From positions 160,414 to 224,413 of the forward strand of contig LVAT01000009.1 in NCBI GenBank assembly GCA_001604135.1: 64,000 nucleotides of DNA. The letters are read 5' to 3'. This document shows, one piece after another, positions 13,149 through 28,601 of the stretch. Origin of the DNA: Clostridiales bacterium Firm_14. GTDB lineage: Bacteria; Bacillota; Clostridia; Saccharofermentanales; Saccharofermentanaceae. Position numbers and translations under genes: made by a program. Positions within the stretch are counted from its first letter, which is position 1. Each line of letters starts with the position of its first letter. The notes under the pieces were generated by a model, which saw only the letters and a program-made list of their open reading frames with translations, did no database searches and was not told the origin of the DNA.

Positions 13149-13964
13149 TTACTGGTTCGTTGTCTCTGTTTTTTGATTAATATGGCTTATTACGTCAAAA
13201 ACCATATCTCCGCTTGCTGCAAGAATCTTTCCGTACATCCATAAGAAAGTATCCGTGCGTTTATAGTCGTTTTTATCTAAGTCGTATTTATTTAGGAATG
13301 TCTCATATTTCTGGCAAAATATTTTGTAATTTCCTAAATCATTTAAAGGAAATTTATCATCATTGCGATTAAGAATCATATACAAAAGATTAGAAGAAAA
13401 CCTGTCAAAAATAGGATAGGAAGGATCTATAAAACTACAAAACTTGGTAGCAAACGAGTATATCTTGTTATTGTATTGGGCATCGTTGCCTTGCTTATTA
13501 ATGGTAGTAATAACGTCTACAACTGAATAATCTTTAGCACTAATTCTCTTTAGAATATTCGGAAATTGATCTTTTATATTTCTTGAAGTTGTTATTACAT
13601 TCTGAAGATTCGTGTTGTACAAAGAATTCAAAACAATAACTGCTTCTTGAACTTGTTTTAAGGTTGGCTCCTTTTCATTACAAATCTCAGAGAATATTTC
13701 TCTTAAGAGCTCATCACCAGGGTTGCATGTCTCAAATGCCATCCGGAATTTTCGCATTTTATTATCATCCAATTCCTTGTGCTTGATTAACTGAAATGTA
13801 TTTAACCTGACAATGTTTTCTTCTGTTGGATTATTCCATGTTTCAACACATAGTTCTATACATTCTCTCAGTTTTTCTGAACTGAAATCAGTCCATCTCT
13901 CAGGATCATTAACTATAGATTCAACAGACTTCTTTTTCTTCTTAATATCTTTCATCCTCTTCAC
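13149..13964 (-). CDS. Unknown 271-aa protein, likely inserted at the 3' end of the WYL gene
   Basis: AT-rich compared with its neighbours and mostly helical. The C-terminal half has KIYSFATKFCSFIDPSYPIFDRFSSNLL, a pattern seen in proteins with an 8-oxoguanine-glycosylase-like helical fold, but the catalytic motif is not recognisable. The listed start is a GTG overlapping the WYL stop. An ATG three codons on (near 13955), placed after GGAGGGTGAAGAGG, is equally likely. The gene lies between 26-bp direct repeats that duplicate the end of the WYL gene, which points to acquisition by insertion. Confidence 0.6.
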   Translation of the reverse strand: MKRMKDIKKKKKSVESIVNDPERWTDFSSEKLRECIELCVETWNNPTEENIVRLNTFQLIKHKELDDNKMRKFRMAFETCNPGDELLREIFSEICNEKEPTLKQVQEAVIVLNSLYNTNLQNVITTSRNIKDQFPNILKRISAKDYSVVDVITTINKQGNDAQYNNKIYSFATKFCSFIDPSYPIFDRFSSNLLYMILNRNDDKFPLNDLGNYKIFCQKYETFLNKYDLDKNDYKRTDTFLWMYGKILAASGDMVFDVISHINQKTETTNQ

Positions 13965-13985
13965 CCTCCATACGCCTTCTTAACC
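13960..13985. repeat. Direct repeat copy 2 (native 3' end of the WYL gene)
   Basis: Partner of the copy at 13057-13082 (25 of 26 bases identical). It includes the last codons and stop of the WYL regulator. About 900 bp separate the copies. Confidence 0.8.
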
Positions 13986-15043
13986 TTCTTAGCCCAATCC
14001 TTCATCTCATCAACGAGCCTTTGGGGTTCCAAGATCACTACATCCGGGGCATAGTTTCTGGCGAACTGCAGCATGGCGGCTTCGGTTACCAGGGCGCTCG
14101 CTGTCAGGCAATCGTCTGTCACTTCTTCAATGCGGACATCCTTGCCGAATATGTCAACAACATCGGTAAGCATACGGCGGACGCACTTGAATCGGACTCT
14201 GGTGTCTTCACTCGCATACATATAGATGTGTTCTTTCATGTATTCGCCGAGGTTTAAGTCCTGGCCGTTGGCACCTTTTAATTCCTTGAAGGGCCTTATC
14301 TTCTTGTCTTCCTGTAAAACAATGTTGCTGATACGATCGATCCTGTAATTGGAGATGGCCTCGTAGTGATCACGGTTGCAGATGAGATAGTATTTGCCGT
14401 CCTTTGCAGCCATCTGGTACGGACTGACGGTATATTTAACGGGCTTGCCATTCTTGTCTGTCTTTGGGCGCATTTTCTTATCAGGTTCCATATCGAGATA
14501 GTTGAAAGACACCATTCTCTTCTTGTCGATCGCTTCATCCAGCATGGCTATGTTATTGAAGATCTGTTTATTGGAATCGCCGGCATCAGGAAGAGTAGCT
14601 ATGTGGCGGACATGAGCCTTAAAATACTTGCTCGAAAGGCCTTCGATCTTCTTAACCAGATCCAGGCGCTGCTTGTGCGGGATGTGGTTTGAGAACAACA
14701 ATCCGTCGATAATGAGGCGAAGCTCTGCATCTGTAAAATCTCTTTCCAGCCAGTAGTCCGACCAGATCGTATTGCCTTCTTTTCCGGCATCTTTAGATTC
14801 TCTCTCGGTCTCTTTATACGAGATTGGTAAACCCATTTCCTTCAGCTTAACGATATTACTCCTGATGGCTTTTCGCTCCACTACCAGGTTATATTCTTTT
14901 TCCAGCAGGTCGATAATGTTTTTCTGATCGAGTGTGTGTTCCTCATCAGTATGCTTGCGCAGAATATCCAGTATGCATAAGGGGATCATCTTCTTGGAAG
15001 TAGCAGTCATATTTTCGTCCTGCCTTTCTGTTGTATTATCCAT
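13961..15043 (-). CDS. WYL-domain transcriptional regulator
   Basis: 360 residues: an N-terminal winged helix (about 15-85, IPLCILDILRKHTDEEHTL...), a middle helical region, and a WYL domain (about 170-265) with KKRMVSFNYLDM, SPYQMAAKDGKYYLICN and NYRIDRISNI. A WCX-type C-terminal region ends in VVILEPQRLVDEMKDW. WYL domains sense ligands and often control defence or stress loci. The ATG at 15043 has AGAGG upstream. Three palindromic 29-bp repeats lie about 150-235 bp upstream. It sits just downstream of the rtcB gene of the Ro60-like locus, on the same strand. Confidence 0.88.
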   Translation of the reverse strand: MDNTTERQDENMTATSKKMIPLCILDILRKHTDEEHTLDQKNIIDLLEKEYNLVVERKAIRSNIVKLKEMGLPISYKETERESKDAGKEGNTIWSDYWLERDFTDAELRLIIDGLLFSNHIPHKQRLDLVKKIEGLSSKYFKAHVRHIATLPDAGDSNKQIFNNIAMLDEAIDKKRMVSFNYLDMEPDKKMRPKTDKNGKPVKYTVSPYQMAAKDGKYYLICNRDHYEAISNYRIDRISNIVLQEDKKIRPFKELKGANGQDLNLGEYMKEHIYMYASEDTRVRFKCVRRMLTDVVDIFGKDVRIEEVTDDCLTASALVTEAAMLQFARNYAPDVVILEPQRLVDEMKDWAKKVKKAYGG

Positions 15044-15295: not shown

Positions 15296-16510
15296 TCACT
15301 CCCCCGCCTTGAAGTTGTACACGGGCTTAATTACTTCGACCACATCAACGGATTCCGTGATCACATCGATGATGTCTTCCAATGACTTGTACGCCATGGG
15401 TGCTTCGTCGAGAGTTTCTTCAGACACGGATGTGGTGAAGATTCCTTCCATGGCTTTCTTATACTCGTCCATGGAGAGAGTGCCCTTTGCCTTTGTTCTG
15501 GACATGATTCTGCCGGCACCGTGAGGCGCGGAGTAGTTCCATTCGGGGTTGCCCTTACCGATGGCAATGACGGAACCGTCCCTCATGTTGATGGGGATGA
15601 ACACCTTCTCACCCTTGTGGGCGGCGATGGAACCCTTTCTTAATATCATCTCAGAAGTATCGATGTAGTTGTGGATCGTGTGGAAGGATTCTCCCGCCAC
15701 AAGTCCGGCTCTTTCGCAGATGATCTCTGCCATGAGCTCTCTGCTTCTCTTGGCGAATGCCTGGCAGATCTCCACGTCGTGGAGGTAGTCTTCCAAGTAT
15801 TTTCCGGTAAGGTAGCAGAGGTCGTCGGGCATGGGATTCTCGCCCTTGAAAGCCACCCAGCGGAGTGCCTTTATTGCTGCCTGGATCTCAGTCTCACGTC
15901 CCTGTTCCTTGTATGTACGGATTATCTCGTCACGCTGTGCTAAGTAAACATCGTAGCCCTTGTCGAGCTTGATCGCGAGCTTCTGGTAGAACTCTGCGAC
16001 CTGCTTACCGAGGTTTCTGGAACCGGAGTGGATGACAAGATACTTTGTGCCGTCAGATGATTCATCGATCTCGATGAAGTGGTTTCCGCCGCCTAACGTA
16101 CCGAGAGATCTGACGAGTCTTCCCGCATCCTTAAGCTCCCTGTAGCACTTGAGGCCGGTCAAGTCAAACTTCTCTTTGCGGCCTTCCCATACTTTTCTGC
16201 CGGAAGGAATATAGTGAGCTGCAACATCGACCATCATGTAGTCGATATCAACCTTGCCGAGTTCCACCGTGTACATTCCACAGCCGATGTCGACACCGAC
16301 AACGTTCGGAACGACCTTGTCCACAACAGTCATTGTGGTACCGATCGTGCAGCCCTTACCGGAATGAACGTCGGGCATGATGCGGATCTTGGATCCTGCA
16401 GTCATCTCATAATCGCACATACGTCTGATCTGCTCGATCGCTTCGTCTTCCACGACCTTTGCGTAACAGATCGCTGTGTTTACTTTTCCTTTGATTTCTA
16501 TAGCTTCCAT
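15296..16510 (-). CDS. rtcB: RNA ligase RtcB, Ro60-like locus type
   Basis: 404 residues with [50 protein letters not shown] and APHGAGR carrying the guanylylated histidine. It ligates 2',3'-cyclic phosphate or 3'-phosphate RNA ends to 5'-OH ends, as in tRNA repair. AAAGGA precedes the ATG. It lies 48 bp downstream of the DUF2828/vWA reading frame and is probably cotranscribed with it. It differs clearly from the PrfH-linked RtcB at 5894-7009, so this genome region carries two RtcB types. Confidence 0.95.
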   Translation of the reverse strand: MEAIEIKGKVNTAICYAKVVEDEAIEQIRRMCDYEMTAGSKIRIMPDVHSGKGCTIGTTMTVVDKVVPNVVGVDIGCGMYTVELGKVDIDYMMVDVAAHYIPSGRKVWEGRKEKFDLTGLKCYRELKDAGRLVRSLGTLGGGNHFIEIDESSDGTKYLVIHSGSRNLGKQVAEFYQKLAIKLDKGYDVYLAQRDEIIRTYKEQGRETEIQAAIKALRWVAFKGENPMPDDLCYLTGKYLEDYLHDVEICQAFAKRSRELMAEIICERAGLVAGESFHTIHNYIDTSEMILRKGSIAAHKGEKVFIPINMRDGSVIAIGKGNPEWNYSAPHGAGRIMSRTKAKGTLSMDEYKKAMEGIFTTSVSEETLDEAPMAYKSLEDIIDVITESVDVVEVIKPVYNFKAGE

Positions 16511-16558: not shown

Positions 16559-18046
16559 TCAGGCCGCTATCTGCTTGTATCTCTCGGCGCCGATGATGCT
16601 CATCATGTATGTGTACGGGTCGAAGCTGTCATCCTTCAGCATCGCGAAGATCTGAGGAGACATGCCGGAGACCAGTACGACGCCTCTGTCGTTCTTTCTG
16701 ACAGGCTGCTGTCTTGTCCAGCTGTTGACGTTCCAGAAGACCACCTTAGGCAGAGCGTAGCCCGCATTAGCGAACTTTCTTCTTGCTGCTTCGAAGTTCG
16801 TCATGTCCGAATTTGCAGTGCCCATATCGAACTCCATGTCGGAGATTATGATGATCCTCGAAGGCATGTCGGACTGCTTCAGTCTGTTCTTTAATGCAGT
16901 GTTCAATATCAAGTCGAATGTCTTCTCAATATTTGTGTTGCTGCACTCGTTGAAGCTCATGCAGTATCTGACCTTCTCGACAATGTCATCACCCTTGATC
17001 TCTACAAGTCTCGGGTTAGCCGAGAAAGTAATGAAGTGGTTCTTGAACATCCCCTTGTTTCTCTCTGCAAAGTAGATGCCCAAAGACTCTGCGACTGCCG
17101 CAGGCATTACGCCCAGGCCGCCGTACATGGAGCCGGAACCGTCGACAACTGCCAATGTGTTATCGGAGTTTACGTAGTTCTCCAATGCATTCCATGTAGC
17201 ATCCAGGACCTTTCTCTCGTCCTGGGAGATCTCAGGGAACTGCTCTCTGTAGCCGTATCTGCCGGCCTTTATGATCCTGCTTACGATGTCGTAAGGAGTC
17301 AATGTGCTTGTCTTCTATACTGAAGGATCGCTTATTGCCCTCTCGATGAAGGCGCCGTATCTTTCCTTATCGTTTCTTATGAAGGCCTTTCTGTACTTGA
17401 ACAATGCCTTTGAAGGCTGATCCTCGTACTCGAAAGAATAATCCTTCAATCTCAGGTTGTTCTCTAAGATCTTTATGTAAGCTCTTAAAGAAGACAGCAT
17501 CTTTCTGTAGGACGCATCAGACATGTTCATCGCCTTGGCGATCTTCTTTGCGATCCTTACAGTCTCCTTTGAGCTTGCGTTTACAGAAGGCAGCCACTTT
17601 GCCATTAATGATACGTTCTTTTGTGCCTGCATATATTCCATATCATCAGTTAAGACAGCCTTGATATAGGCGACTGCCTCCTGCTCGCATGCTGTATCCA
17701 TCAATTCCAGGATATCGTCATATCTGCCGTATTCGGCGATATTATCGATGTTCTTAATGACTACGTCAGGATAGTTCTGGGCAAGGAACTTCATTATTAC
17801 TCTGAAGAATCTCCTCTCGCCCAAACCGCCTCTGATATCTCTTGAATAGAAGAGGATCTTCATGGCAGTTTCCTTATCTTCTGCAAAGGCTCTGACAAAT
17901 CTGTTTACGATCTCTTCGTCATCTGCATTTCTCAATGCGCCTGCCGTTGCGAATAAGTCTAAGCAATCTGACATTGTAGACGCGTAAGTTGCTGCACCGT
18001 TTGCTGTGTAAGCCTTGTTTGCTTCTCTCTTCAAAAAATTCAACAT
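16559..18046 (-). pseudogene. DUF2828 / Ro60-like TROVE-vWA protein interrupted by one in-frame TAG
   Basis: One frame of 495 codons with an amber codon at codon 244 (17315-17317). The N-terminal part (18046-17318) is a helical-repeat domain with CLDLFATAGALRN, ILFYSRDIRGGLGERRFFR and IAEYGRYDDIL, as in DUF2828/TROVE-like proteins. The C-terminal part has a vWA MIDAS motif, VDGSGSMYG, and IIISDMEFD. The reading continues across the TAG in the same frame (SDPSV-stop-KTSTLTPYDIV), with no frameshift and no new ribosome binding site. Ro60 proteins form rings that bind misfolded RNAs and Y RNAs. It may be a recent nonsense mutation, a sequencing error or read-through. TAG is a normal stop elsewhere here. 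AAAGGAGG precedes the ATG. Confidence 0.85.
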
Positions 18047-18064
18047 TTTCTTTTCCTCCTTTAC

Positions 18065-18135
18065 AAGGTGCCGGGGGGGTTGCTTTCCCCCAAACGATTA
18101 ACAGTCGTGGAGCAATTATTTGCTGTATGCACCTT
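18065..18135 (-). ncRNA. Second structured module in the DUF2828 leader
   Basis: A 7-bp closing stem (AAGGTGC / GCACCTT) encloses three hairpins on the minus strand: AGCAA-ATAA-TTGCT, ACGA-7 nt-TCGT and GGGGG-AAAGCAA-CCCCC. It lies between the tRNA-like module and the ribosome binding site of the Ro60-like gene. It could be a regulatory leader element or the 3' part of a longer non-coding RNA. Confidence 0.5.
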
Positions 18136-18139
18136 TATT

Positions 18140-18240
18140 CAACGTTCTTACAAGACACTTGGCCTTCACCTCGGCCGCTAAGGCAGGATTCGAACCTGCA
18201 AACCAACCATTTTTGATTGCTGAGCGTGTCTTCCGCGTTG
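18140..18240 (-). ncRNA. Y-RNA-like element with a tRNA-like core
   Basis: On the minus strand, outer stems CAACG/CGTTG and AAGACAC/GTGTCTT enclose an internal loop and a tRNA-like core. The core has an acceptor-like stem GCTCAG/CTTAGC (one mismatch), an anticodon-like hairpin CAATC-AAAAAT-GGTTG and a perfect T-arm GCAGG-TTCGAAT-CCTGC. A small GGCC-8 nt-GGCC hairpin follows. There is no D-arm and no usable anticodon loop, so this is not a functional tRNA. Bacterial Ro60 partners (YrlA RNAs) have the same plan: a protein-binding stem plus a tRNA mimic. It lies directly upstream of the Ro60-like gene, same strand. Confidence 0.72.
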
Positions 18241-18261
18241 CACCCATATGTTAACCCGCCT

Positions 18262-18365
18262 GTTGGGGTTTTGATAGATGCAGATTGACTTAGGTACACA
18301 ACCCCAATATAATTGGAATATTAAGGCAATTACTGGGAATTTTATAGAATTTTACAACCCCAAAC
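18262..18365. promoter_or_regulatory. Divergent promoter region with ACAACCCCAA repeats
   Basis: On the plus strand, TTGACT (18285-18290), a 17-bp spacer and TATAAT (18308-18313) form a near-perfect housekeeping promoter for the RHH-WYL gene. ACAACCCCAA occurs inside the spacer (18298-18307) and again at 18354-18363 before the ribosome binding site. An inverted relative (TTGGGGTT) is at 18263-18270. This is a likely autoregulatory operator set that could also control the opposite RNA/Ro60-like/rtcB transcript. I could not place the minus-strand promoter with confidence. Confidence 0.7.
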
Positions 18366-18377
18366 AGGAGTTATACT

Positions 18378-19364
18378 ATGACCGAGAAATATAAGATCTA
18401 CCTCTCCGAAGACACAAAAGCAAGGCTCATTAACGATGCCGAACTCTTTGAATTCACAAGAAATGACGGCACGGTTAACCTCAATGGGTTCCTTAAGGAA
18501 CTCATTGTCAACTATTTCGAGCAATACAGGAAAGATAACGACGAGCTCTTAAACAGCGTCGTTAACGAGCTGACTTCAGTCAAGTCTATGAAGTCCAAAG
18601 AAGCTTCCGCACTGGCAGATAAGATAATCAGGACTTATATAACTAATAAGGAGACCGGCACAGGCAAGAGCACGGTAATAACGCTCACCGTCAGCGGCGA
18701 GTCTTATAACATCATTCAGATAATAGAGAACAATCTCCTGCAGGATAACTCCATGTCAGGCTACATCAAGGACATGTTCTTGTCCTATCTCTCGATCCCC
18801 AGAAATAAACGCGAAGAGATAATCTTCAAAGAGACTTATGAGACGATCTATAGGGCCATCGCGGAATCAAAAGTCCTCACATTCACATCAGCCTTCTCCG
18901 GCAAAAAGGGACCCGTCCGTGTCGAACCCTATCTGATCGCGACTTCAAAGGAAGAGCAGTTCAGCTACCTCCTCTGCCACGGCCACAATTACAACAATGA
19001 CCACACATTCAGGATCTCCAGAATGCGTAACGTCTTTATTACAACAGACACGTTCGTAAGGAAAAAGACGGTTGCAGACAGGCTCACCGGTATCGGCATG
19101 AAGCATCCCCACTCCGCAGCACCTGAAGTCCATGCGGTGATAGAGATGTCTGCAAGAGGCAAACAGATGTACCGCATGATCGTCAAGAACCGTCCCGCCG
19201 TATCAGAGATCGACGGTGACAAATACTACTTCGACTGGCCTGAGATGCAGCTCGAAGATTACTTCAGACGCTTCGGCAAAGAAGCCGTGGTGCTTCGCCC
19301 GCGCCGTCTTAAAGAGAAACTTCAGAAATACTACTCTGAAGCCATAGAAGCTTACGTAAATTAA
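18378..19364 (+). CDS. RHH-WYL transcriptional regulator of the RNA-repair locus
   Basis: 328 residues. The N-terminal region (KYKIYLSEDTKARL ... LNGFLKELIVNYFEQY) looks like a ribbon-helix-helix DNA-binding domain. The C-terminal two thirds contain a WYL-type domain (AESKVLTFTSAFSGKKGPVRVEPYLIA, SYLLCHGHNYNNDHTFRISRMRNV) and end with VVLRPRRLKEKLQKYY. AGGAG precedes the ATG. It is divergent from the tRNA-like RNA and Ro60-like/rtcB genes, across an intergenic region with three operator-like repeats. WYL regulators respond to nucleic acid or small ligands, so RNA fragments are a reasonable inducer guess. Confidence 0.8.
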   Translation: MTEKYKIYLSEDTKARLINDAELFEFTRNDGTVNLNGFLKELIVNYFEQYRKDNDELLNSVVNELTSVKSMKSKEASALADKIIRTYITNKETGTGKSTVITLTVSGESYNIIQIIENNLLQDNSMSGYIKDMFLSYLSIPRNKREEIIFKETYETIYRAIAESKVLTFTSAFSGKKGPVRVEPYLIATSKEEQFSYLLCHGHNYNNDHTFRISRMRNVFITTDTFVRKKTVADRLTGIGMKHPHSAAPEVHAVIEMSARGKQMYRMIVKNRPAVSEIDGDKYYFDWPEMQLEDYFRRFGKEAVVLRPRRLKEKLQKYYSEAIEAYVN

Positions 19365-20710: not shown

Positions 20711-20825
20711 AGTTCTTATTCCGTTCCCATCGTTCAAGCATTAGCACCTTACTAAAAAAGCAGGTTGCTGTGCGGTCACAGGGCTTGTCCCTCGCGCACT
20801 CTTTATGGTTTTTAATCAAGCAGCT

Positions 20826-21808: not shown

Positions 21809-22996
21809 ATGATTCAGATCAATGTTGGAAAAACTATAAGAAAAATACGAAAAGAGAAGAACCTTACTCAGGAAGATCTTGCTTCTATGGCTGATTTAGA
21901 TAGGACTTATATAGCTGGTGTCGAAGTTGGAACACGCAATATTTCCATCAGGAATTTGGAAAAAATCATGGAGGCTTTAAACATCTCATTCTCCGTGTTT
22001 TTTAAAGAAAGCGAGGTAGACATGAACAAGTATTGTTTGGGAACTATTGAAGCATCTGAGCAATTAATTAAAGACCTTTATATATCTCTTCGTCACGAAA
22101 TTAATGAATGGTCAAAAATAACATGTCAAACCCCTCAAGCTCGCATGGGATACATCGGTCAACACTTGGTGAGCGTCGTTACAGGTTATCCCGGAGGAAA
22201 ATCAGGGGCGAGAGGCTATGATTTGATAATGGGTAACGATGAATATGGCGAAATCAAAACGTGTTATCGTGTTGATCAGTTAGGCGAATGTGCAGATTGT
22301 GGAGCGGTTGTTTCAAGTTTAGAAAAAGAATGTTCCGTTTGTAAATCTCAGAACATTATTCGAAAAGATGATTCTAAATGGCTTATTGGTATACGACACG
22401 AACAAGAGTTTTCAGAAATACTTGATCCAAAACGCTATTATTTCGTTTTGTTTGAATTCGAAGACATAAATGATATTAACAATGACAATATTGTGGCTTC
22501 AATATGGGAAGTAGACCCCAAAACCAGAGGGTTTGCCTTGTGCATGATAGATTATTACTTGAATATTCGAGAAAAATCAAAATCAAAAGCTCCCTTTAAC
22601 ATGTGGCCTCATAGTCTCAAATTTGCTCTTACAAATCCAAAGCTGATTTATAAGTCAATTATCAAAGGTGACGGAACAATAGATACCGTTGTTTTCCCTA
22701 CAAAAAATAACGAATATGTTGATAACCTTCTATCCTTACCTTCTTATTCTAGCGCCACAACATTAACTGTTAATTGCTTGTGTGATGCCATAAAACAAGT
22801 ATCTCCAGATTATAAAATTAAGAAAAACAAGAAGCAGCTACTTCTATCTTTCGAGGAAATAAGAAAAGATAAAGGTATTTCAAATCCAGTTTTATGTGAT
22901 TTGCTGGCAAATGCTATCTATCTACCTACCATAAAGGATAAAACAGATAAATTGCCACCTCGACTTTTAGAGTACTATAATAACTTAAAGGTTTGA
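21809..22996 (+). CDS. HTH-fused type II restriction endonuclease of the MamI family
   Basis: 395 residues. Residues 5-65 form an XRE helix-turn-helix (IRKIRKEKNLTQEDLASMADLDRTYIAGVEVGTRNIS). The rest matches the MamI endonuclease pattern: RMGYIGQHLVSVVTGYPGGKSGARGYDLIMG then GEIKTCYRVDQLGECADCG, with a D...ExK nuclease core and a CxxC...CxxC zinc-knuckle-like pair. MamI itself cuts GATNNNNATC; the specificity here is not known. GGAGAGG precedes the ATG. It is convergent with the methyltransferase and overlaps it by 12 bp. The AT-rich composition suggests transfer. Confidence 0.85.
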   Translation: MIQINVGKTIRKIRKEKNLTQEDLASMADLDRTYIAGVEVGTRNISIRNLEKIMEALNISFSVFFKESEVDMNKYCLGTIEASEQLIKDLYISLRHEINEWSKITCQTPQARMGYIGQHLVSVVTGYPGGKSGARGYDLIMGNDEYGEIKTCYRVDQLGECADCGAVVSSLEKECSVCKSQNIIRKDDSKWLIGIRHEQEFSEILDPKRYYFVLFEFEDINDINNDNIVASIWEVDPKTRGFALCMIDYYLNIREKSKSKAPFNMWPHSLKFALTNPKLIYKSIIKGDGTIDTVVFPTKNNEYVDNLLSLPSYSSATTLTVNCLCDAIKQVSPDYKIKKNKKQLLLSFEEIRKDKGISNPVLCDLLANAIYLPTIKDKTDKLPPRLLEYYNNLKV

Positions 22997-23899
22997 CAAT
23001 CCTGGTATAGTGATCTGCGTACGCCTGATTCGTTCTAAGGATTCGTTATAATACTTCTCGTCTATTTCAAATCCGATATATTCTCGGTTGTAATTTTGAC
23101 AGGCCTCAGCTGTGGTACCACTACCCATAAATGGATCCAAAACAATATCGCCCTCATTGCTACTTGCCAATACCAGTCGTTCTATTAGCTTGAGGGGTTT
23201 TTGTGTTGGATGGAATCTACCCCTTTCACCATAGAAATTTATATCATCCCAAACATCAGTTAATCCTATCTGAGCATTGAAAGTCTGAGCAATGTTGTCA
23301 TAAGGAATATTAAAATCCAATATCTTTTCCAATTTGTGCCATACCTCTTCTGTGGGAAGCTGTTTGCACACATTTCTACCAGTATAGATGCTCCACATTC
23401 CGCCGCCATTAGATTTTACACCCAATGCATCATTTATCTGCTTTGAAGTTAATCCTAATTCGATTTGTCGATTCTTAAGAAACTGTTTAACAAAAGGTTT
23501 ACTATCTTTATATAGCAACAATATGCTTTCTGTAACATTAGGAAATTGCTTGTAACCTTTTGTTGCTCTTCCAGAAACAGCTTGCATTCCCTTGTTAATA
23601 ATGATTTGTTGCCTCAGTTCCAAGCCAAATTCTTCAAGAATAGGCAATAAACGGCTTAACATTCTAAAATAGCCAAACAAGTAAAAACTACCACCTTTTC
23701 GCAAAACTCTGGCAGCTTCTTGAATCCAACTTTTTGACCAGTCTATATAGTCCTCTTCCGTCCTCCACAAATAGTCCCATTTTTCACCAACAACTTTGAA
23801 ATACGGGGGATCAGCAATAATCAAATCTATTGATTCATTTTCAACGCGATTTTTCATGCGAAGTATACAATCTTCGTTATATATGATATTAGTTTTCAT
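22985..23899 (-). CDS. DNA methyltransferase, beta class (N6-A or N4-C)
   Basis: 304 residues. The catalytic motif DPPY (30-33) precedes the AdoMet-binding motif DPFMGSGTT near the C-terminus, which is the beta-class order. HPTQKPLKLIERLV is also present. It protects DNA from the neighbouring MamI-like endonuclease. AAGGTGATGAG precedes the ATG. The two genes point at each other and share 12 bp at their ends. Confidence 0.92.
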   Translation of the reverse strand: MKTNIIYNEDCILRMKNRVENESIDLIIADPPYFKVVGEKWDYLWRTEEDYIDWSKSWIQEAARVLRKGGSFYLFGYFRMLSRLLPILEEFGLELRQQIIINKGMQAVSGRATKGYKQFPNVTESILLLYKDSKPFVKQFLKNRQIELGLTSKQINDALGVKSNGGGMWSIYTGRNVCKQLPTEEVWHKLEKILDFNIPYDNIAQTFNAQIGLTDVWDDINFYGERGRFHPTQKPLKLIERLVLASSNEGDIVLDPFMGSGTTAEACQNYNREYIGFEIDEKYYNESLERIRRTQITIPGLSNL

Positions 23900-24747: not shown

Positions 24748-25899
24748 TTATTCTCCAAGAATATCAATCACTCTTACCAATCTATCATTAACATTGCTAG
24801 TAGTTGCAGCAGATTTTGCAAAGGTAGAATCAATAGTATCATCAGTCATTATCGTATCTTTCTGAGATTCTATTGCATTCCATTTATCAAATATAAAAGG
24901 AATGCAGGCATCAACTAAATACTCCTTAAATTGATGCTTTTCAAACAATACCATCAAGTCTAGCGTGCGCTGAAGAATTCCTTCCACCTCTTCACAAGAA
25001 AGAGTAAGTTTTTTTTCTTGAAGTTTCTGAAGAACATCATTTATCATATCTCTTGGACGAGAATTGTAATTTTCTACTATTTTCTTCTCTCGATTAGTTC
25101 TCAAATAGAACGCTATACTTCTATAAAACCTTCCATAATCATTGAAATGTTTGATATCATTTTTTGAAAAAATAGACTTATATCGTTGTTTCTCCGTTTT
25201 TTCTATCTCACCGTTAACTCTTTTTTCGACAAATTCTCTAATTAATTCTGTAACGTCAGAACGATAAATGGCCCTTCTGATTTCATTAACTTTTAATGGC
25301 TCTGCACCTTTGTTTAATCGCGCAAAAATATCATATTTAGTAAATTCAGGGGATTTTGCTGTTACAACATATACGTCAAGAATTGAAGACAACATTTCAA
25401 CTGTCTTCTCCCTATAGCTTTCCTGTAACTCAGCAAAAATTTTCCCATCAAAGATATCGCCATAGTATTCTAATGACTTTTTGTTTAGTTGATATTTATT
25501 TTCGATAAAATCAATAATTGCGGTAAGTCTTTGTTTACCATCAACCACCTCATATTTATTGACTTCTAACATGTCTGAACCTGTTACTTCTACTACATAT
25601 ATAGGCGGAATAAGTATTCCCATATAAAGCGACTCAATAAACGCCGTTTTTTTGTCTTGTTTCCAAACATCTGATCGCTGATAATCTGGATTCAATATCA
25701 ACTTTTTATCCTTTATTTTCTGTATTATTTCCAGTATTGACCATGTTTGCTTTACTAATTTGGTTTTTTCTAATAGTTCTCTTTTTCTTTCGTATTCGTT
25801 ATGGCTTTCTTCACCAGTAACACCCTCGTTCTCAGCAAACTGAGGATCATATGAATAGTTTTCCTCAGAATTACTTAATTCATCATAAAGCTTGTCCAT
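24748..25899 (-). CDS. DUF262-domain protein (GmrSD/ParB-like nuclease family)
   Basis: 383 residues. The DUF262 signature is clear: LILNPDYQRSDVWKQDKKTAFIESLYMGILIPP, then VVDGKQRLTAI (DGKQR at 120-124), then IFARLNKGAEPLKVNEIRRAIY. DUF262 domains have a ParB-like fold and couple NTP hydrolysis to nuclease activity in GmrSD and related defence proteins. The C-terminal DUF1524 HNH nuclease of GmrSD is absent, so the nuclease activity may come from the HEPN-like partner. Confidence 0.88.
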   Translation of the reverse strand: MDKLYDELSNSEENYSYDPQFAENEGVTGEESHNEYERKRELLEKTKLVKQTWSILEIIQKIKDKKLILNPDYQRSDVWKQDKKTAFIESLYMGILIPPIYVVEVTGSDMLEVNKYEVVDGKQRLTAIIDFIENKYQLNKKSLEYYGDIFDGKIFAELQESYREKTVEMLSSILDVYVVTAKSPEFTKYDIFARLNKGAEPLKVNEIRRAIYRSDVTELIREFVEKRVNGEIEKTEKQRYKSIFSKNDIKHFNDYGRFYRSIAFYLRTNREKKIVENYNSRPRDMINDVLQKLQEKKLTLSCEEVEGILQRTLDLMVLFEKHQFKEYLVDACIPFIFDKWNAIESQKDTIMTDDTIDSTFAKSAATTSNVNDRLVRVIDILGE

Positions 25900-26082: not shown

Positions 26083-26472
26083 CTAATTCAATTCTTTGAG
26101 CAAGTTCACTATCACAACATCCGCCGGCAACCACTCAACTTCATCAAAATTATGCAAAGATAACCAAATGGCAGCCTCATGCTCTAATAGCTTCATTTCG
26201 GTTCCCTCAGCGAGCTTGGCCCAAAAGCAATCCATGGATAAATGGAATGTAGGATAATCGTATTCGACAGTGGTTAAAAGATCTCCAACAATAATATCAG
26301 CATCAAGCTCTTCCTTAATCTCACGAACAAGAGCTTCTTGAGAAGTTTCTCCTGGTTCGACCTTGCCTCCCGGGAACTCCCAACCATCCTTGAAATCACC
26401 ATATCCACGCTGTGTCGCAAAGATCTTGTTATCTTTGGTGATAACTGCTGCTACTACTTTTACTGTTTTCAA
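26083..26472 (-). CDS. MutT-like Nudix hydrolase
   Basis: 129 residues with a Nudix box at about 36-58, GGKVEPGE...REIKEEL; the usual final glycine is replaced. It resembles 8-oxo-dGTP diphosphatases (WEFPGGKVEPGE). It overlaps the upstream helicase gene by 4 bp (ATGA) and is translationally coupled to it. It may hydrolyse an oxidised or modified nucleotide linked to the helicase function. Confidence 0.9.
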   Translation of the reverse strand: MKTVKVVAAVITKDNKIFATQRGYGDFKDGWEFPGGKVEPGETSQEALVREIKEELDADIIVGDLLTTVEYDYPTFHLSMDCFWAKLAEGTEMKLLEHEAAIWLSLHNFDEVEWLPADVVIVNLLKELN

Positions 26473-28601
26473 ATCTCTTCCAGTCCTAAACTCTTTAGAT
26501 AGTTATAAGTTCCGTTGTAGTACTCTGGAAGTCGTGTCTCGTCTTCCCAAAAACCGTTCTCGGATTTATGGGGATTGCCTTCGGGAACACATATAATCAT
26601 TCCTGATCTGGCACGTGTCATGAGCACTCTGTATGCATTAAGCATATATTTCATGCGGTCTTGCTTGCTCTCAGTTACAGCTTCCAGCTTGTTCCATTTG
26701 CGGTTAAATGTATAAAACTTCCATTCGCCGTTTTCATAACGCATATCTGCATCCCAAAGAACACAAGTGTATTCCAACTCCAATCCTTGAACCTGAATCT
26801 CAGTTGCTGCATCTTCAAGATAATTCGAAGATCTGGTGTCTGTGATATCCTCCAGAAACCAATGAACCGCATTATCGTCATCAGAAGGCAAGACGTGAAT
26901 TCCTAAGGGTTTATACCTTGCCGATTCCTTTGTAATAAGGACTCCTGTCCTTTCATTGCCTCTGGCCTTCTCATGGATCCATCTCTTGGCCTTTTCCATA
27001 TCTCTAGTAAGAACGATCGGATAGTTTGCTTTTATCTCTTCGTAGATCGATACTGCACTACCATCTATAGCAAGCAAAGAGTGCACAAAGGCCGATAACT
27101 TCTCAGCTCTAAAAGATCTTAAGGAAACGCCAAGATGGAGCTTCTCGTTATAAGTAACGTTAGGATTGTCCTTAAGCAATTCATTGACTTTACCTTCTGC
27201 ATATTCAGGTTCAGTCAGTTTAGGCGAGATATAAATCTTCCAGTGTGGGAACATTTTGTTCAGCGAGCTGATCCACTCGGAAATTCCCGCTTCTCCGGTA
27301 TTGATCTCCTGGCCGCCTCCGACAAGACAGACTATTGTGGCCCAGTCCTCTCTCTGGTCCAGCGACCAGATAAGGAACGAAGCTTCCGACATCGGGAAGT
27401 TGTCTACTTTCTTCTTATTTCCGTAGGTACCGCCTCGCTTCAGGTAATCGGCGATTCTCTTATGTGTCCATGAACGCTGAGCTTCATCAAAGATAGCAAC
27501 ATGCTCAACTTCACCATAGCCTGATCCTTGCATTTTTACAGCCTTGTCAGGATCAATCTCAAGAACACCATTCTCTACTGGGGTCTTGATCTTCTCTAGC
27601 ATGTTGTCGCGGTAACGGTGAATGATCTGAATAAACTTGCTTACTTCTCTTCTGGAATCAGAAAGCTTCTTGCCTTCTTTTCTTTCCTTGCATTTCTTGT
27701 AGTTATCCTGAGCCAAAGCTTCGTTTAATACTGCTACCAAAGGTCCGTTTCCCGAAAGATATACAGCTCCTTCGTCTTCAATTGGCTTATCTGAATCCTG
27801 ATAAGTCTGCTTTACTGCAACTTCCAAACCGACCAGAGTCTTTCCGGCGCCTGGAACACCAGTAACAAAACAAATGCTTTTTTCGCCGTTCTTTTTGCTC
27901 TTGTGGATAACATCCAGTATGTACGCAATCGTAGTATCAGTTGTTACTTGATCAGCTTCATGCCTCGTTATGTCTTTTACCGAGTGACTCTCATAAAGCG
28001 TCCTGGCTGCTTCAATAATAGTAGGTGTAGGTGCATAAGGGCTTATAATCCAATTTTCATTAACCGGGCTCTCGTTAGGGAATCTTTCCAAAACATCTAC
28101 AATCAGCTTTGTGATTTCAAGTTCACCGGTCATTAAAGGATTAAGCACCCTGTCATCGTATATTGAAGACTGTATTACCGAAGAAGCGCCTGGATAACGT
28201 GTGGCAACAAGGATCGGTACTATTACTTTGTCTTCACTGTACTTATGGAAGTTCTTCAAATCTAAGGCATAATCTAACACCTGATCCACATCACCAACCA
28301 AAATATCTGATTGGCCTACTTTAAACTCAATACAAAAGATTATTCCTTTCAGAATCAATACAACGTCTATCCGTTTGCCAAGACGTGGGATGTCGTATTC
28401 AAAAACTATCTTTCCGTCGGTTTCGTCCCAGGGAAACAGTGCTTTTTGCAGGATATCGATCTCACATGACCATGCATCGCTCTGCGTTGTCTGCAGCATG
28501 CCGTGATAACCGTTACAAAGTATTCCTAATACTTCGTTGCTGTTCGTCATCAAAAACGTTTTTATATCACTGCTGTATAAACAACGCGGACTATCCGGCA
28601 T
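26469..28601 (-). CDS. PD-(D/E)XK nuclease-DUF2075 helicase fusion
   Basis: 710 residues. The N-terminal region has a PD-(D/E)XK-like core, KRIDVVLILKGIIFCIEFKVG (Asp79, E92-x-K94). The rest is the DUF2075/schlafen-like helicase domain: Walker A GVPGAGKT (248-255), VAIFDEAQRSW, a central INTGEAGISEW block and a C-terminal VLMTRARSGMIICVP. It probably acts on nucleic acid during stress or phage attack. It forms a two-gene operon with a Nudix hydrolase. Confidence 0.85.
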   Translation of the reverse strand: MPDSPRCLYSSDIKTFLMTNSNEVLGILCNGYHGMLQTTQSDAWSCEIDILQKALFPWDETDGKIVFEYDIPRLGKRIDVVLILKGIIFCIEFKVGQSDILVGDVDQVLDYALDLKNFHKYSEDKVIVPILVATRYPGASSVIQSSIYDDRVLNPLMTGELEITKLIVDVLERFPNESPVNENWIISPYAPTPTIIEAARTLYESHSVKDITRHEADQVTTDTTIAYILDVIHKSKKNGEKSICFVTGVPGAGKTLVGLEVAVKQTYQDSDKPIEDEGAVYLSGNGPLVAVLNEALAQDNYKKCKERKEGKKLSDSRREVSKFIQIIHRYRDNMLEKIKTPVENGVLEIDPDKAVKMQGSGYGEVEHVAIFDEAQRSWTHKRIADYLKRGGTYGNKKKVDNFPMSEASFLIWSLDQREDWATIVCLVGGGQEINTGEAGISEWISSLNKMFPHWKIYISPKLTEPEYAEGKVNELLKDNPNVTYNEKLHLGVSLRSFRAEKLSAFVHSLLAIDGSAVSIYEEIKANYPIVLTRDMEKAKRWIHEKARGNERTGVLITKESARYKPLGIHVLPSDDDNAVHWFLEDITDTRSSNYLEDAATEIQVQGLELEYTCVLWDADMRYENGEWKFYTFNRKWNKLEAVTESKQDRMKYMLNAYRVLMTRARSGMIICVPEGNPHKSENGFWEDETRLPEYYNGTYNYLKSLGLEEI

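What the first reader, a model, noticed from the sequence alone, without database searches (positions are those of the whole stretch)
18140..18240. tRNA-mimicking Y-RNA-like element next to a Ro60-like/RtcB operon
A perfect T-arm, an anticodon-like hairpin and an acceptor-like stem, but no D-arm, sit inside two outer stems (CAACG/CGTTG and AAGACAC/GTGTCTT). The gene directly downstream is a DUF2828/TROVE-vWA protein, followed by rtcB. In other bacteria Ro60 pairs with YrlA, a Y RNA that mimics tRNA. A DUF2828-linked equivalent would be a new RNA family. The structure is seen in the sequence; the role is inferred.
Basis: partly seen in the sequence, partly recalled or inferred. Interest (0 to 1): 0.85.

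Follow-up and report, generated by a model that had tools for sequence, protein, structure and literature searches.

The report
tRNA-mimic RNAs beside Ro60-like gene
In front of a gene for a Ro60-like RNA-binding protein, gut bacteria and many phages carry rows of small RNA elements that share one handle-like stem but each display a different imitation of a transfer RNA, a new kind of bacterial Y RNA that may serve as bait or adaptor in tRNA damage and repair.

Summary
Both share a frame: a 7-bp stem (AAG-N4 / N4'-CUU), two free bases, ACAGCAA, a variable interior, and a G after the stem. In 80 Clostridia DUF2828 loci the motif occurs 215 times; 196 copies have their own exact complement downstream (control 2%). 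IMG/VR loci give 134 framed copies on the sense strand, 0 antisense, with compensatory swaps at all seven pairs. Felix O1, Listeria P100, mycobacteriophage LeBron, Campylobacter CP81 and E. coli K-12 phage adrianh carry it beside DUF2828. Interiors are tRNA parts far above shuffled controls: T-arms, anticodon stem-loops, cloverleafs, and circularly permuted tRNAs of the YrlA kind that Rfam's YrlA model hits below its cut-off. A DUF2828 model matches Ro60/Rsr best (top ten Foldseek hits). Best reading: a Y-RNA-like family whose frame is the handle of DUF2828 and whose interior displays a tRNA piece, as decoy or tether. Structure, conservation and association are shown; binding, expression and function are inferred. 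New variant of the Ro60-Y RNA system; key earlier Y RNA papers were not readable here.

The parts
18151..18232 (-). Element E1: framed tRNA-mimic RNA (stem AAGACAC/GTGTCTT, TCAGCAA motif, T-arm module)
18226..18232 (-). E1 frame stem, 5' strand AAGACAC
   Evidence: covariation
18217..18223 (-). E1 conserved motif TCAGCAA (family consensus ACAGCAA)
18183..18199 (-). E1 T-arm GCAGG-TTCGAAT-CCTGC
   Evidence: 4 of 5 pairs changed on both sides across 29 sequences
18152..18158 (-). E1 frame stem, 3' strand GTGTCTT, followed by G at 18151
18236..18240 (-). Outer stem around E1, 5' strand CAACG
   Evidence: modest support
18140..18144 (-). Outer stem around E1, 3' strand CGTTG
   Evidence: modest support
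18064..18135 (-).
18120..18126 (-). E2 conserved motif ACAGCAA
18094..18108 (-). E2 anticodon-arm mimic ACGA-CTGTTAA-TCGT (Asn GUU loop)
18246..18254 (-). Promoter -10-like block (TTAACATAT) just before E1, conserved in the genus (judged by eye)
16559..18046 (-). DUF2828/DUF7788 (TROVE-like + vWA) gene, Ro60-like fold; interrupted by one in-frame TAG at 17315-17317
15296..16510 (-). rtcB, RNA ligase
13961..15043 (-). WYL-domain gene downstream of rtcB
18378..19364 (+). Divergent WYL-domain gene sharing the intergenic region

Best explanation
E1 and E2 are two members of a family of Y-RNA-like RNAs that belong to the DUF2828 branch of Ro60-like proteins. Each RNA has a constant handle (7- to 8-bp end stem, mostly AAG/CUU at its end in Clostridia, the ACAGCAA strand beside it, and a G after the stem) and a variable display module that often imitates a whole tRNA or a piece of one (T-arm/elbow, anticodon stem-loop, cloverleaf, or circularly permuted T-arm/acceptor/D-arm as in YrlA). 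Proposed mechanism: the RNAs are transcribed with or ahead of the DUF2828 operon; DUF2828 binds the handle; the display modules engage proteins or nucleases that act on tRNAs, as baits (decoys) or tethers, while RtcB, where present, rejoins cut tRNA or cut mimics. Shown: structure, covariation, association with DUF2828, predicted Ro60-like fold, tRNA likeness of many interiors. Inferred: transcription as small RNAs, handle binding, decoy or tether action, link to RtcB.
For: Frame: 215 motifs in 75 of 80 Clostridia loci, 196 with own 7-nt complement plus G; other-stem control 2% (max 4.8%); antisense 0; rest of the loci (750 kb over both strands) 7 motifs, 1 with complement. IMG/VR loci: 329 sense anchors, 134 with own complement (control 2.5), antisense 28 anchors, 0; 55 stems; all seven pairs swap. 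Pooled alignment of 55: 99.7% paired, 76 double-change cells against 26.5. Scan that started from the RNA motif alone: DUF2828 in 15 of 35 framed but 2 of 85 unframed loci. CM R1 in 186 order genomes: 45 have E 1e-4 or better, 44 of these carry DUF2828. Interiors over 461 distinct elements: T-arm 111 (shuffled 1.4), D-AC-T 32 (0), permuted T-acceptor-D 13 (0.3); CU-NNN-AA anticodon loops 82 (1.85); ARAGORN tRNA 25 (0). Cloverleaf-in-frame subclass: 27 pairs, 75 double-change cells against 23.6. YrlA model hits overlapping four framed elements, 34-50 bits. DUF2828 model: all ten PDB matches with E up to 0.001 are Ro60/Rsr, VIA Z 14. rtcB in reach in 54 of 80 Clostridia loci.
Against: No expression data for the elements; in the one transcriptome met (Listeria phage CKA15, PMC12282133) the abundant RNA region whose coordinates I saw (26,236-26,727) is not our framed trio (25,289-25,552). 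No binding test. rtcB was found in none of 80 IMG/VR loci (up to 3 kb each side, window RtcB as tblastn query), so repair by RtcB is not a general part. Most interiors show no recognisable tRNA part by any single descriptor. The fold match is distant: Foldseek TM about 0.4, VIA rmsd 8.2 and 11.5 A for the two best rows, model pLDDT 73. E2 abuts the ribosome-binding site, which fits a leader as well. YrlA's own Ro60-binding signature was not compared.
Confidence: 0.7

Rival explanations
1. Cis-regulatory leader: the elements act only in the 5' leader of the DUF2828 mRNA, where DUF2828 (or tRNA-binding factors) binds them and shuts off or opens expression of the operon; the tRNA likeness lets the leader sense tRNA state.
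For: E2 ends a few bases before the Shine-Dalgarno AAAGGAGG; in the 80 Clostridia loci framed copies lie upstream of the gene (196 in the 1500 nt upstream, 1 in the rest); a promoter-like block before E1 is conserved in the genus.
Against: Arrays of up to 7 elements; in IMG/VR loci 30 of 134 framed copies lie after the DUF2828 start, and in Felix O1 and adrianh they lie among tRNA genes downstream of the gene; four bacterial copies lie away from DUF2828. The two modes can coexist.
Confidence: 0.2
2. Captured or decaying tRNA genes: the interiors are tRNA genes or pseudogenes dropped into a repetitive sequence and have no RNP function.
For: 25 of 461 elements contain an ARAGORN-grade tRNA; a tRNA-Phe gene (L118 3793-3865) lies directly before a frame that holds a tRNA-Phe-like interior.
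Against: The frame, not the tRNA, is what is constant, with compensatory changes; T-arm and cloverleaf pairs are kept by compensatory change; 436 of 461 elements are not called as tRNA.
Confidence: 0.04
3. Recombination or cassette-end sites (attC-like) that assemble tRNA-rich arrays in mobile elements.
For: Tandem, rapidly changing arrays; presence in phages, a plasmid and next to tRNA arrays.
Against: Orientation fixed to the DUF2828 gene (0 antisense framed copies with the strict anchors); G after the stem and ACAGCAA kept on one side only; the partner gene is a Ro60-like protein, not an integrase.
Confidence: 0.04

Closest known systems
YrlA, bacterial Y RNA (Rfam RF02553; structure 6CU1)
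   Same: RNA encoded beside a Ro60-fold protein, often with rtcB; end stem as handle plus tRNA-like module; circularly permuted T-acceptor-D order in 13 of 461 elements; RF02553 hits overlapping four framed elements at 34-50 bits.
   Different: No hit in the window region up to E 10, none above gathering in the window and 28 loci scanned; handle carries ACAGCAA and a 3' G; most recognised modules are not permuted (T-arm, anticodon stem-loop, normal-order cloverleaf); tandem arrays of up to 7; partner is DUF2828, not Pfam TROVE.
Salmonella rsr-yrlBA-rtcBA RNA repair operon (PMC7790460, passages seen)
   Same: Ro60-like protein, tRNA-mimic RNAs and RtcB in one locus.
   Different: Protein is DUF2828; the regulators seen beside it are WYL proteins. 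RtcA and RtcR were not searched for here.
Putative Y RNAs of Listeria phage CKA15 (PMC12282133, passages and section 8 seen)
   Same: Same DUF2828 protein (their CKA15_055, HHpred match Rsr), same idea of Y RNAs.
   Different: Their RNA region at 26,236-26,727 is another sequence without a frame; the framed elements at 25,289-25,552 are not discussed in the passages seen.
tRNA (RF00005)
   Same: Interiors imitate tRNA arms; 25 of 461 pass ARAGORN.
   Different: Enclosed in a foreign end stem with the ACAGCAA strand; window elements are not called as tRNA (16.7 bits for E1).

Membership tests
YrlA / bacterial Y RNA (RF02553) | Covariance-model match at gathering score | tested here: not met
   Window region: no YrlA hit up to E 10. 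Framed phage elements: 34-50 bits, gathering 69. For comparison, canonical TROVE loci in Clostridia also stay below it: 42-51 bits, 4 of 4.
YrlA / bacterial Y RNA (RF02553) | Circularly permuted tRNA-like module (T-arm, closed acceptor, D-arm) | tested here: not met
   Not met for E1 and E2 of the window; met by descriptor for 13 of 461 relatives, 12 of them viral or phage.
YrlA / bacterial Y RNA (RF02553) | Encoded next to a Ro60-fold protein | tested here: met
   DUF2828 model: ten best PDB matches are Ro60/Rsr; association with DUF2828.
YrlA / bacterial Y RNA (RF02553) | Physical binding of the end stem by the Ro60-like protein | not testable with these tools
   Needs an RNA-protein assay.
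YrlA / bacterial Y RNA (RF02553) | Ro60-binding sequence signature of known bacterial Y RNAs (recalled, from no call) | not tested
   Source paper not held.
Ro60 / TROVE protein family | Pfam TROVE (PF05731) match | tested here: not met
   Only PF11443, PF25043 and weak VWA models match; PF05731 finds nothing in G000.
Ro60 / TROVE protein family | Helical-repeat ring plus vWA fold | tested here: met
   Foldseek E 1.8e-7 to 3.9e-5 for ten Ro60/Rsr entries, TM about 0.4; VIA Z 14.2 (9kop, Trove domain) and 14.1 (2nvo), next non-Ro60 rows 8.9; model pLDDT 73.
Ro60 / TROVE protein family | vWA metal site DxSxS | tested here: met
   D305, S307, S309 invariant in alignment A4 of nine homologues.
tRNA gene | ARAGORN or RF00005 call | tested here: not met
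   Neither element called; E1 16.7 bits against 29.
freshwater-2 RNA (RF02980) | Covariance-model match at gathering score | tested here: not met
   E2 21.9 bits against 49.9, E 0.39.

The most novel reading that the evidence does not exclude
DUF2828 loci are fast-evolving decoy arrays: a Ro60-like protein holds a library of RNAs by one constant handle, and each RNA displays a different tRNA part (anticodon loops of Asn, Lys, Arg, Ser, Ile, Phe; T-arm/elbow; whole cloverleafs) as bait for tRNA-cutting toxins and defence nucleases. Phages and bacteria would both use it, with RtcB repairing cut tRNA where present. The bias to anticodons for ANN codons (53 of 85 loop counts) would reflect the usual targets of such nucleases.
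Probability: 0.35. Interest if true: 0.95.

Novelty: new variant of a known kind. Interest (0 to 1): 0.85.

Why it matters
Bacterial Y RNAs are known as tRNA-like modules tied to Ro60, with unclear purpose. Here is a second branch with its own handle and a varied set of displayed tRNA parts, present in Clostridia and in laboratory phages, among them adrianh on E. coli K-12 and FADO on B. subtilis. That makes the question what Y RNAs are for directly testable: which tRNA part is shown can be matched to which nuclease or enzyme is engaged. It also gives a mark (the ACAGCAA handle) for finding unannotated phage RNAs, and suggests a role for DUF2828/PHROG 850, found in 682 of 50,697 phage records.

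Tried and rejected
Rfam at gathering on the window gives tRNA and a SAM riboswitch only; on E1/E2 at E up to 10 six matches below gathering, best freshwater-2 and tRNA, judged chance or partial likeness. Fold energy alone is weak evidence. ARAGORN on doubled interiors as a test for permutation added nothing, so I used a descriptor for T-arm, closed acceptor and D-arm; one of its 13 hits, L004, is in the genus and probably spurious. The outer CAACG stem is only modestly supported. Of seven Clostridia loci without an exact framed motif, L130, L151, L159, L169 carry deviant elements, L167 has only 296 nt upstream, L114 apparently has another gene in between, L183 has rtcB directly upstream. No framed element in the Aeh1 piece, in the MT837221 fragment or in the pieces of genome G558. 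With the relaxed anchor NCAGCRA, adrianh and FADO each also show one antisense chance match. Canonical TROVE: only 4 of 291 class genomes; none of the 4 loci has a framed anchor, a small control. The weak CM match in G124 (E 0.0016) lies in a coding sequence. PDB sequence search with A4 gave 0 hits, NCBIfam 0.

Limits of the counts. Finders require pairing or list all anchors, and the listing was cut; the unbiased counts are. demand exact complements, so deviant copies count as misses. 498 elements were reduced to 461 by dropping exact duplicates. R1 was built from loci it then found again; only its lack of hits elsewhere is informative.

Literature: searches listed no paper whose listing or seen passages describe the ACAGCAA frame or DUF2828-linked RNAs, except the Y RNA suggestion of PMC12282133. 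Not held and so not read: PMC4201824, PMC6047535, PMC6281776, PMC10870794, doi 10.1093/nar/gkw722. PMC4201824 is cited in PMC12282133 as having found Y RNAs in bacteria and mycobacteriophages; it may overlap with the phage part of this family.

Full report
WHAT IS THERE. The finding lies on the minus strand, upstream of a DUF2828/DUF7788 (vWA) gene (16559-18046 -) followed by rtcB (15296-16510 -) and a WYL gene. The described T-arm and stems exist. Directly between the element (E1, 18151-18232) and the gene sits a second one (E2, 18064-18135). Both read: AAG-N4, two bases, [A/T]CAGCAA, variable interior, N4'-CUU, G. E2 folds as a cloverleaf with an anticodon-type arm ACGA-CUGUUAA-UCGU; its loop is that of tRNA-Asn, and the window's own tRNA-Asn has the same loop on another stem.

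CONSERVATION IN THE GENUS AND ORDER. DUF2828 homologues were found in 38 of 85 genomes of the genus, 43 of 115 of the family, 45 of 188 of the order. All 44 distinct upstream regions from the two genera of the family carry frames, 43 two and one a single one; both loci of another family of the order carry one. On 55 pooled elements the frame stem is paired in 99.7% of cells with 76 double changes (26.5 in shuffles; best slid version 24); these rest on few distinct stems, so the wider sets below weigh more. In 29 E1 sequences the T-arm has 4 of 5 pairs changed on both sides. A covariance model of the frame run on 186 genomes of the order gave matches at E 1e-4 or better in 45 genomes, 44 with DUF2828; the exception is G020, 76% complete.

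UNBIASED TEST IN CLOSTRIDIA. The one genome-contig scan with the DUF2828 alignment returned the best 80 loci (more exist), among them Anaerotignum lactatifermentans DSM 14214, Oscillibacter valericigenes Sjm18-20, Pseudoflavonifractor phocaeensis and Butyrivibrio. Equal contig numbers and lengths tie genus members to 'uncultured Saccharofermentans' (G073, CAJOJI010000092) and Ruminococcaceae AB4001 (G001, JHXJ01000001). The motif AAG-N6-NCAGCAA occurs 215 times within 1500 nt upstream in 75 of 80 loci; 196 have the exact complement of their own AAG-N4 plus G 30-150 nt downstream (73 loci). With the stem of another element the rate is 2% (max 4.8%). Antisense: 0 motifs. Rest of the loci, 750 kb over both strands: 7 motifs, 1 with complement. 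Loci hold 1 to 7 framed copies. A further 27 framed copies break the AAG rule but keep pairing. An eighth pair is possible in 257 of 387 elements against 154 by chance. rtcB is found in 54 of 80 pieces, 50 downstream and 4 upstream.

PHAGES. DUF2828 is in 682 of 50,697 phage records, 4 of 72,556 plasmids and 415 IMG/VR stretches. In 72 unique of 80 IMG/VR loci: 329 sense ACAGCAA anchors, 134 with own 7-nt complement (control 2.5) in 54 loci, 55 distinct stems, all seven pairs with compensatory types, G after the stem in 123; antisense 28 anchors and none framed. Of 13 named records fetched, 11 carry frames: Bacillus phages PJN02 and FADO, Listeria LP-048, P100 and CKA15 (close relatives), a Subdoligranulum plasmid, Felix O1 and adrianh, mycobacteriophage LeBron, Enterococcus phage Ben, Campylobacter CP81; Aeh1 and the MT837221 fragment do not. 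In a scan that started from the RNA motif alone, 35 of 120 loci are framed and 15 of these contain DUF2828, against 2 of 85 unframed (Fisher p 6e-8). In six other genomes of the phylum with DUF2828, five have frames. rtcB was not found in any of the 80 IMG/VR loci, though P100 and LP-048 have an annotated tRNA splicing ligase nearby.

WHAT THE INTERIORS ARE. Over 461 distinct elements (233 Clostridia, 129 viral, 74 genus and order, 25 phage/plasmid): T-arm in 111 (shuffled mean 1.4), normal-order D-anticodon-T in 32 (0), permuted T-acceptor-D in 13 (0.3); anticodon stem-loops CU-NNN-AA in 82 (1.85), led by Asn GUU, Lys UUU, Phe GAA, Ser UGA, Arg UCU, Ser GCU; ARAGORN tRNA in 25 (0 in five shuffles). 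The rest have no tRNA part that these descriptors see. A subclass with its own loops shows the full cloverleaf inside the frame: 17 sequences, 27 pairs, 90.5% paired, 75 double-change cells (23.6 shuffled, best slid 26), all five helices with double changes, the inner acceptor helix weakest at 70%; the 17 were chosen because they looked alike. Rfam's YrlA model hits four framed elements (L262, L250, L277 twice) at 34-50 bits, overrunning the frame by 7-18 nt. It scores the Y RNAs of canonical TROVE loci at 42-51 bits, 4 of 4; all are below its gathering score of 69. YrlA is a circularly permuted tRNA by structure (PMC11472068, passages). Canonical TROVE loci show no framed ACAGCAA (4 loci).

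THE PROTEIN. By sequence DUF2828 has no PDB hit and no TROVE match. An AlphaFold2 model from nine homologues (pLDDT 73) finds ten PDB matches with E up to 0.001, all Ro60 or Rsr, TM about 0.4; VIA-align gives Z 14.2 to 9kop (Trove domain, rmsd 8.2 A over 387) and 14.1 to 2nvo (Rsr, 11.5 A over 332), the Ro60 rows all above the first other row at 8.9. Phage annotators already call it 'Ro-like' or 'RNA-binding'.

MECHANISM. YrlA joins a basal stem that binds the Ro60-like Rsr to a tRNA-like effector module (PMC8394870, passages). The same two-part logic is seen here: constant handle, variable tRNA-like display. That the handle is the DUF2828 site is inferred from co-occurrence, orientation and constancy. 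For the display I favour bait or tether for tRNA-acting proteins: pieces shown are parts that nucleases and tRNA enzymes recognise, they turn over fast, they lie beside tRNA arrays in phages and beside rtcB in Clostridia. Hughes et al. (PMC7790460, passages) proposed that the tRNA-like part of YrlA might inhibit an anticodon nuclease. A leader function of the gene-proximal element is not excluded and may coexist.

NOVELTY. At gathering scores Rfam has no family for the frame (window and 28 loci; searches give tRNA, tmRNA, ROOL, SAM riboswitch and a group II intron), and the paper searches listed none. The kind (Ro60 plus tRNA-mimic Y RNA, with RtcB) is known, so I call it a new variant. The main risk to novelty is the 2014 Y RNA survey, which was not readable here.

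Noticed in passing
window 17315-17317 (-): One in-frame TAG splits the DUF2828 gene; the genus homologues found are open across this stretch. Mutation or assembly error; the gene may be inactive in this genome.
   Followed up: partly
L103 4073-4132, L104 3976-4029, L105 3533-3589, L106 4500-4552 (-): Four genus genomes have a framed element away from DUF2828, each preceded by what looks by eye like a circularly permuted tRNA, in at least some within a stem GGATCTGATCC/GGATCAGATCC; G020 has it without a detected DUF2828. Rfam gathering gives no hit there.
   Followed up: partly
L127 1486-3899 and L140: DUF2828 locus sits behind an array of tRNA genes, in L127 with a ROOL RNA, a phage-like setting.
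   Followed up: no
L118 3793-3966: A tRNA-Phe gene lies directly before a frame whose interior is tRNA-Phe-like, as if recently captured.
   Followed up: no
L280 (Listeria phage CKA15) 4237-4728: The abundant phage RNA of PMC12282133 lies here, between tRNA genes, about 1 kb upstream of DUF2828, with no ACAGCAA frame; a separate unexplained RNA.
   Followed up: no
window 18240-18320 (-): Intergenic block with GGGGTTGT/AACCCC repeats and TAACATA looks more conserved across the genus than the element interiors (by eye); perhaps shared operator and promoters of the divergent WYL gene.
   Followed up: no
window 20724-20811 (-): SAM riboswitch, 57 bits.
   Followed up: no
window 21809-23899: A helix-turn-helix protein with a C-terminal extension (+) convergent with a DNA methyltransferase-like gene (-), possibly a restriction-modification pair (reading by eye, no family search).
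   Followed up: no
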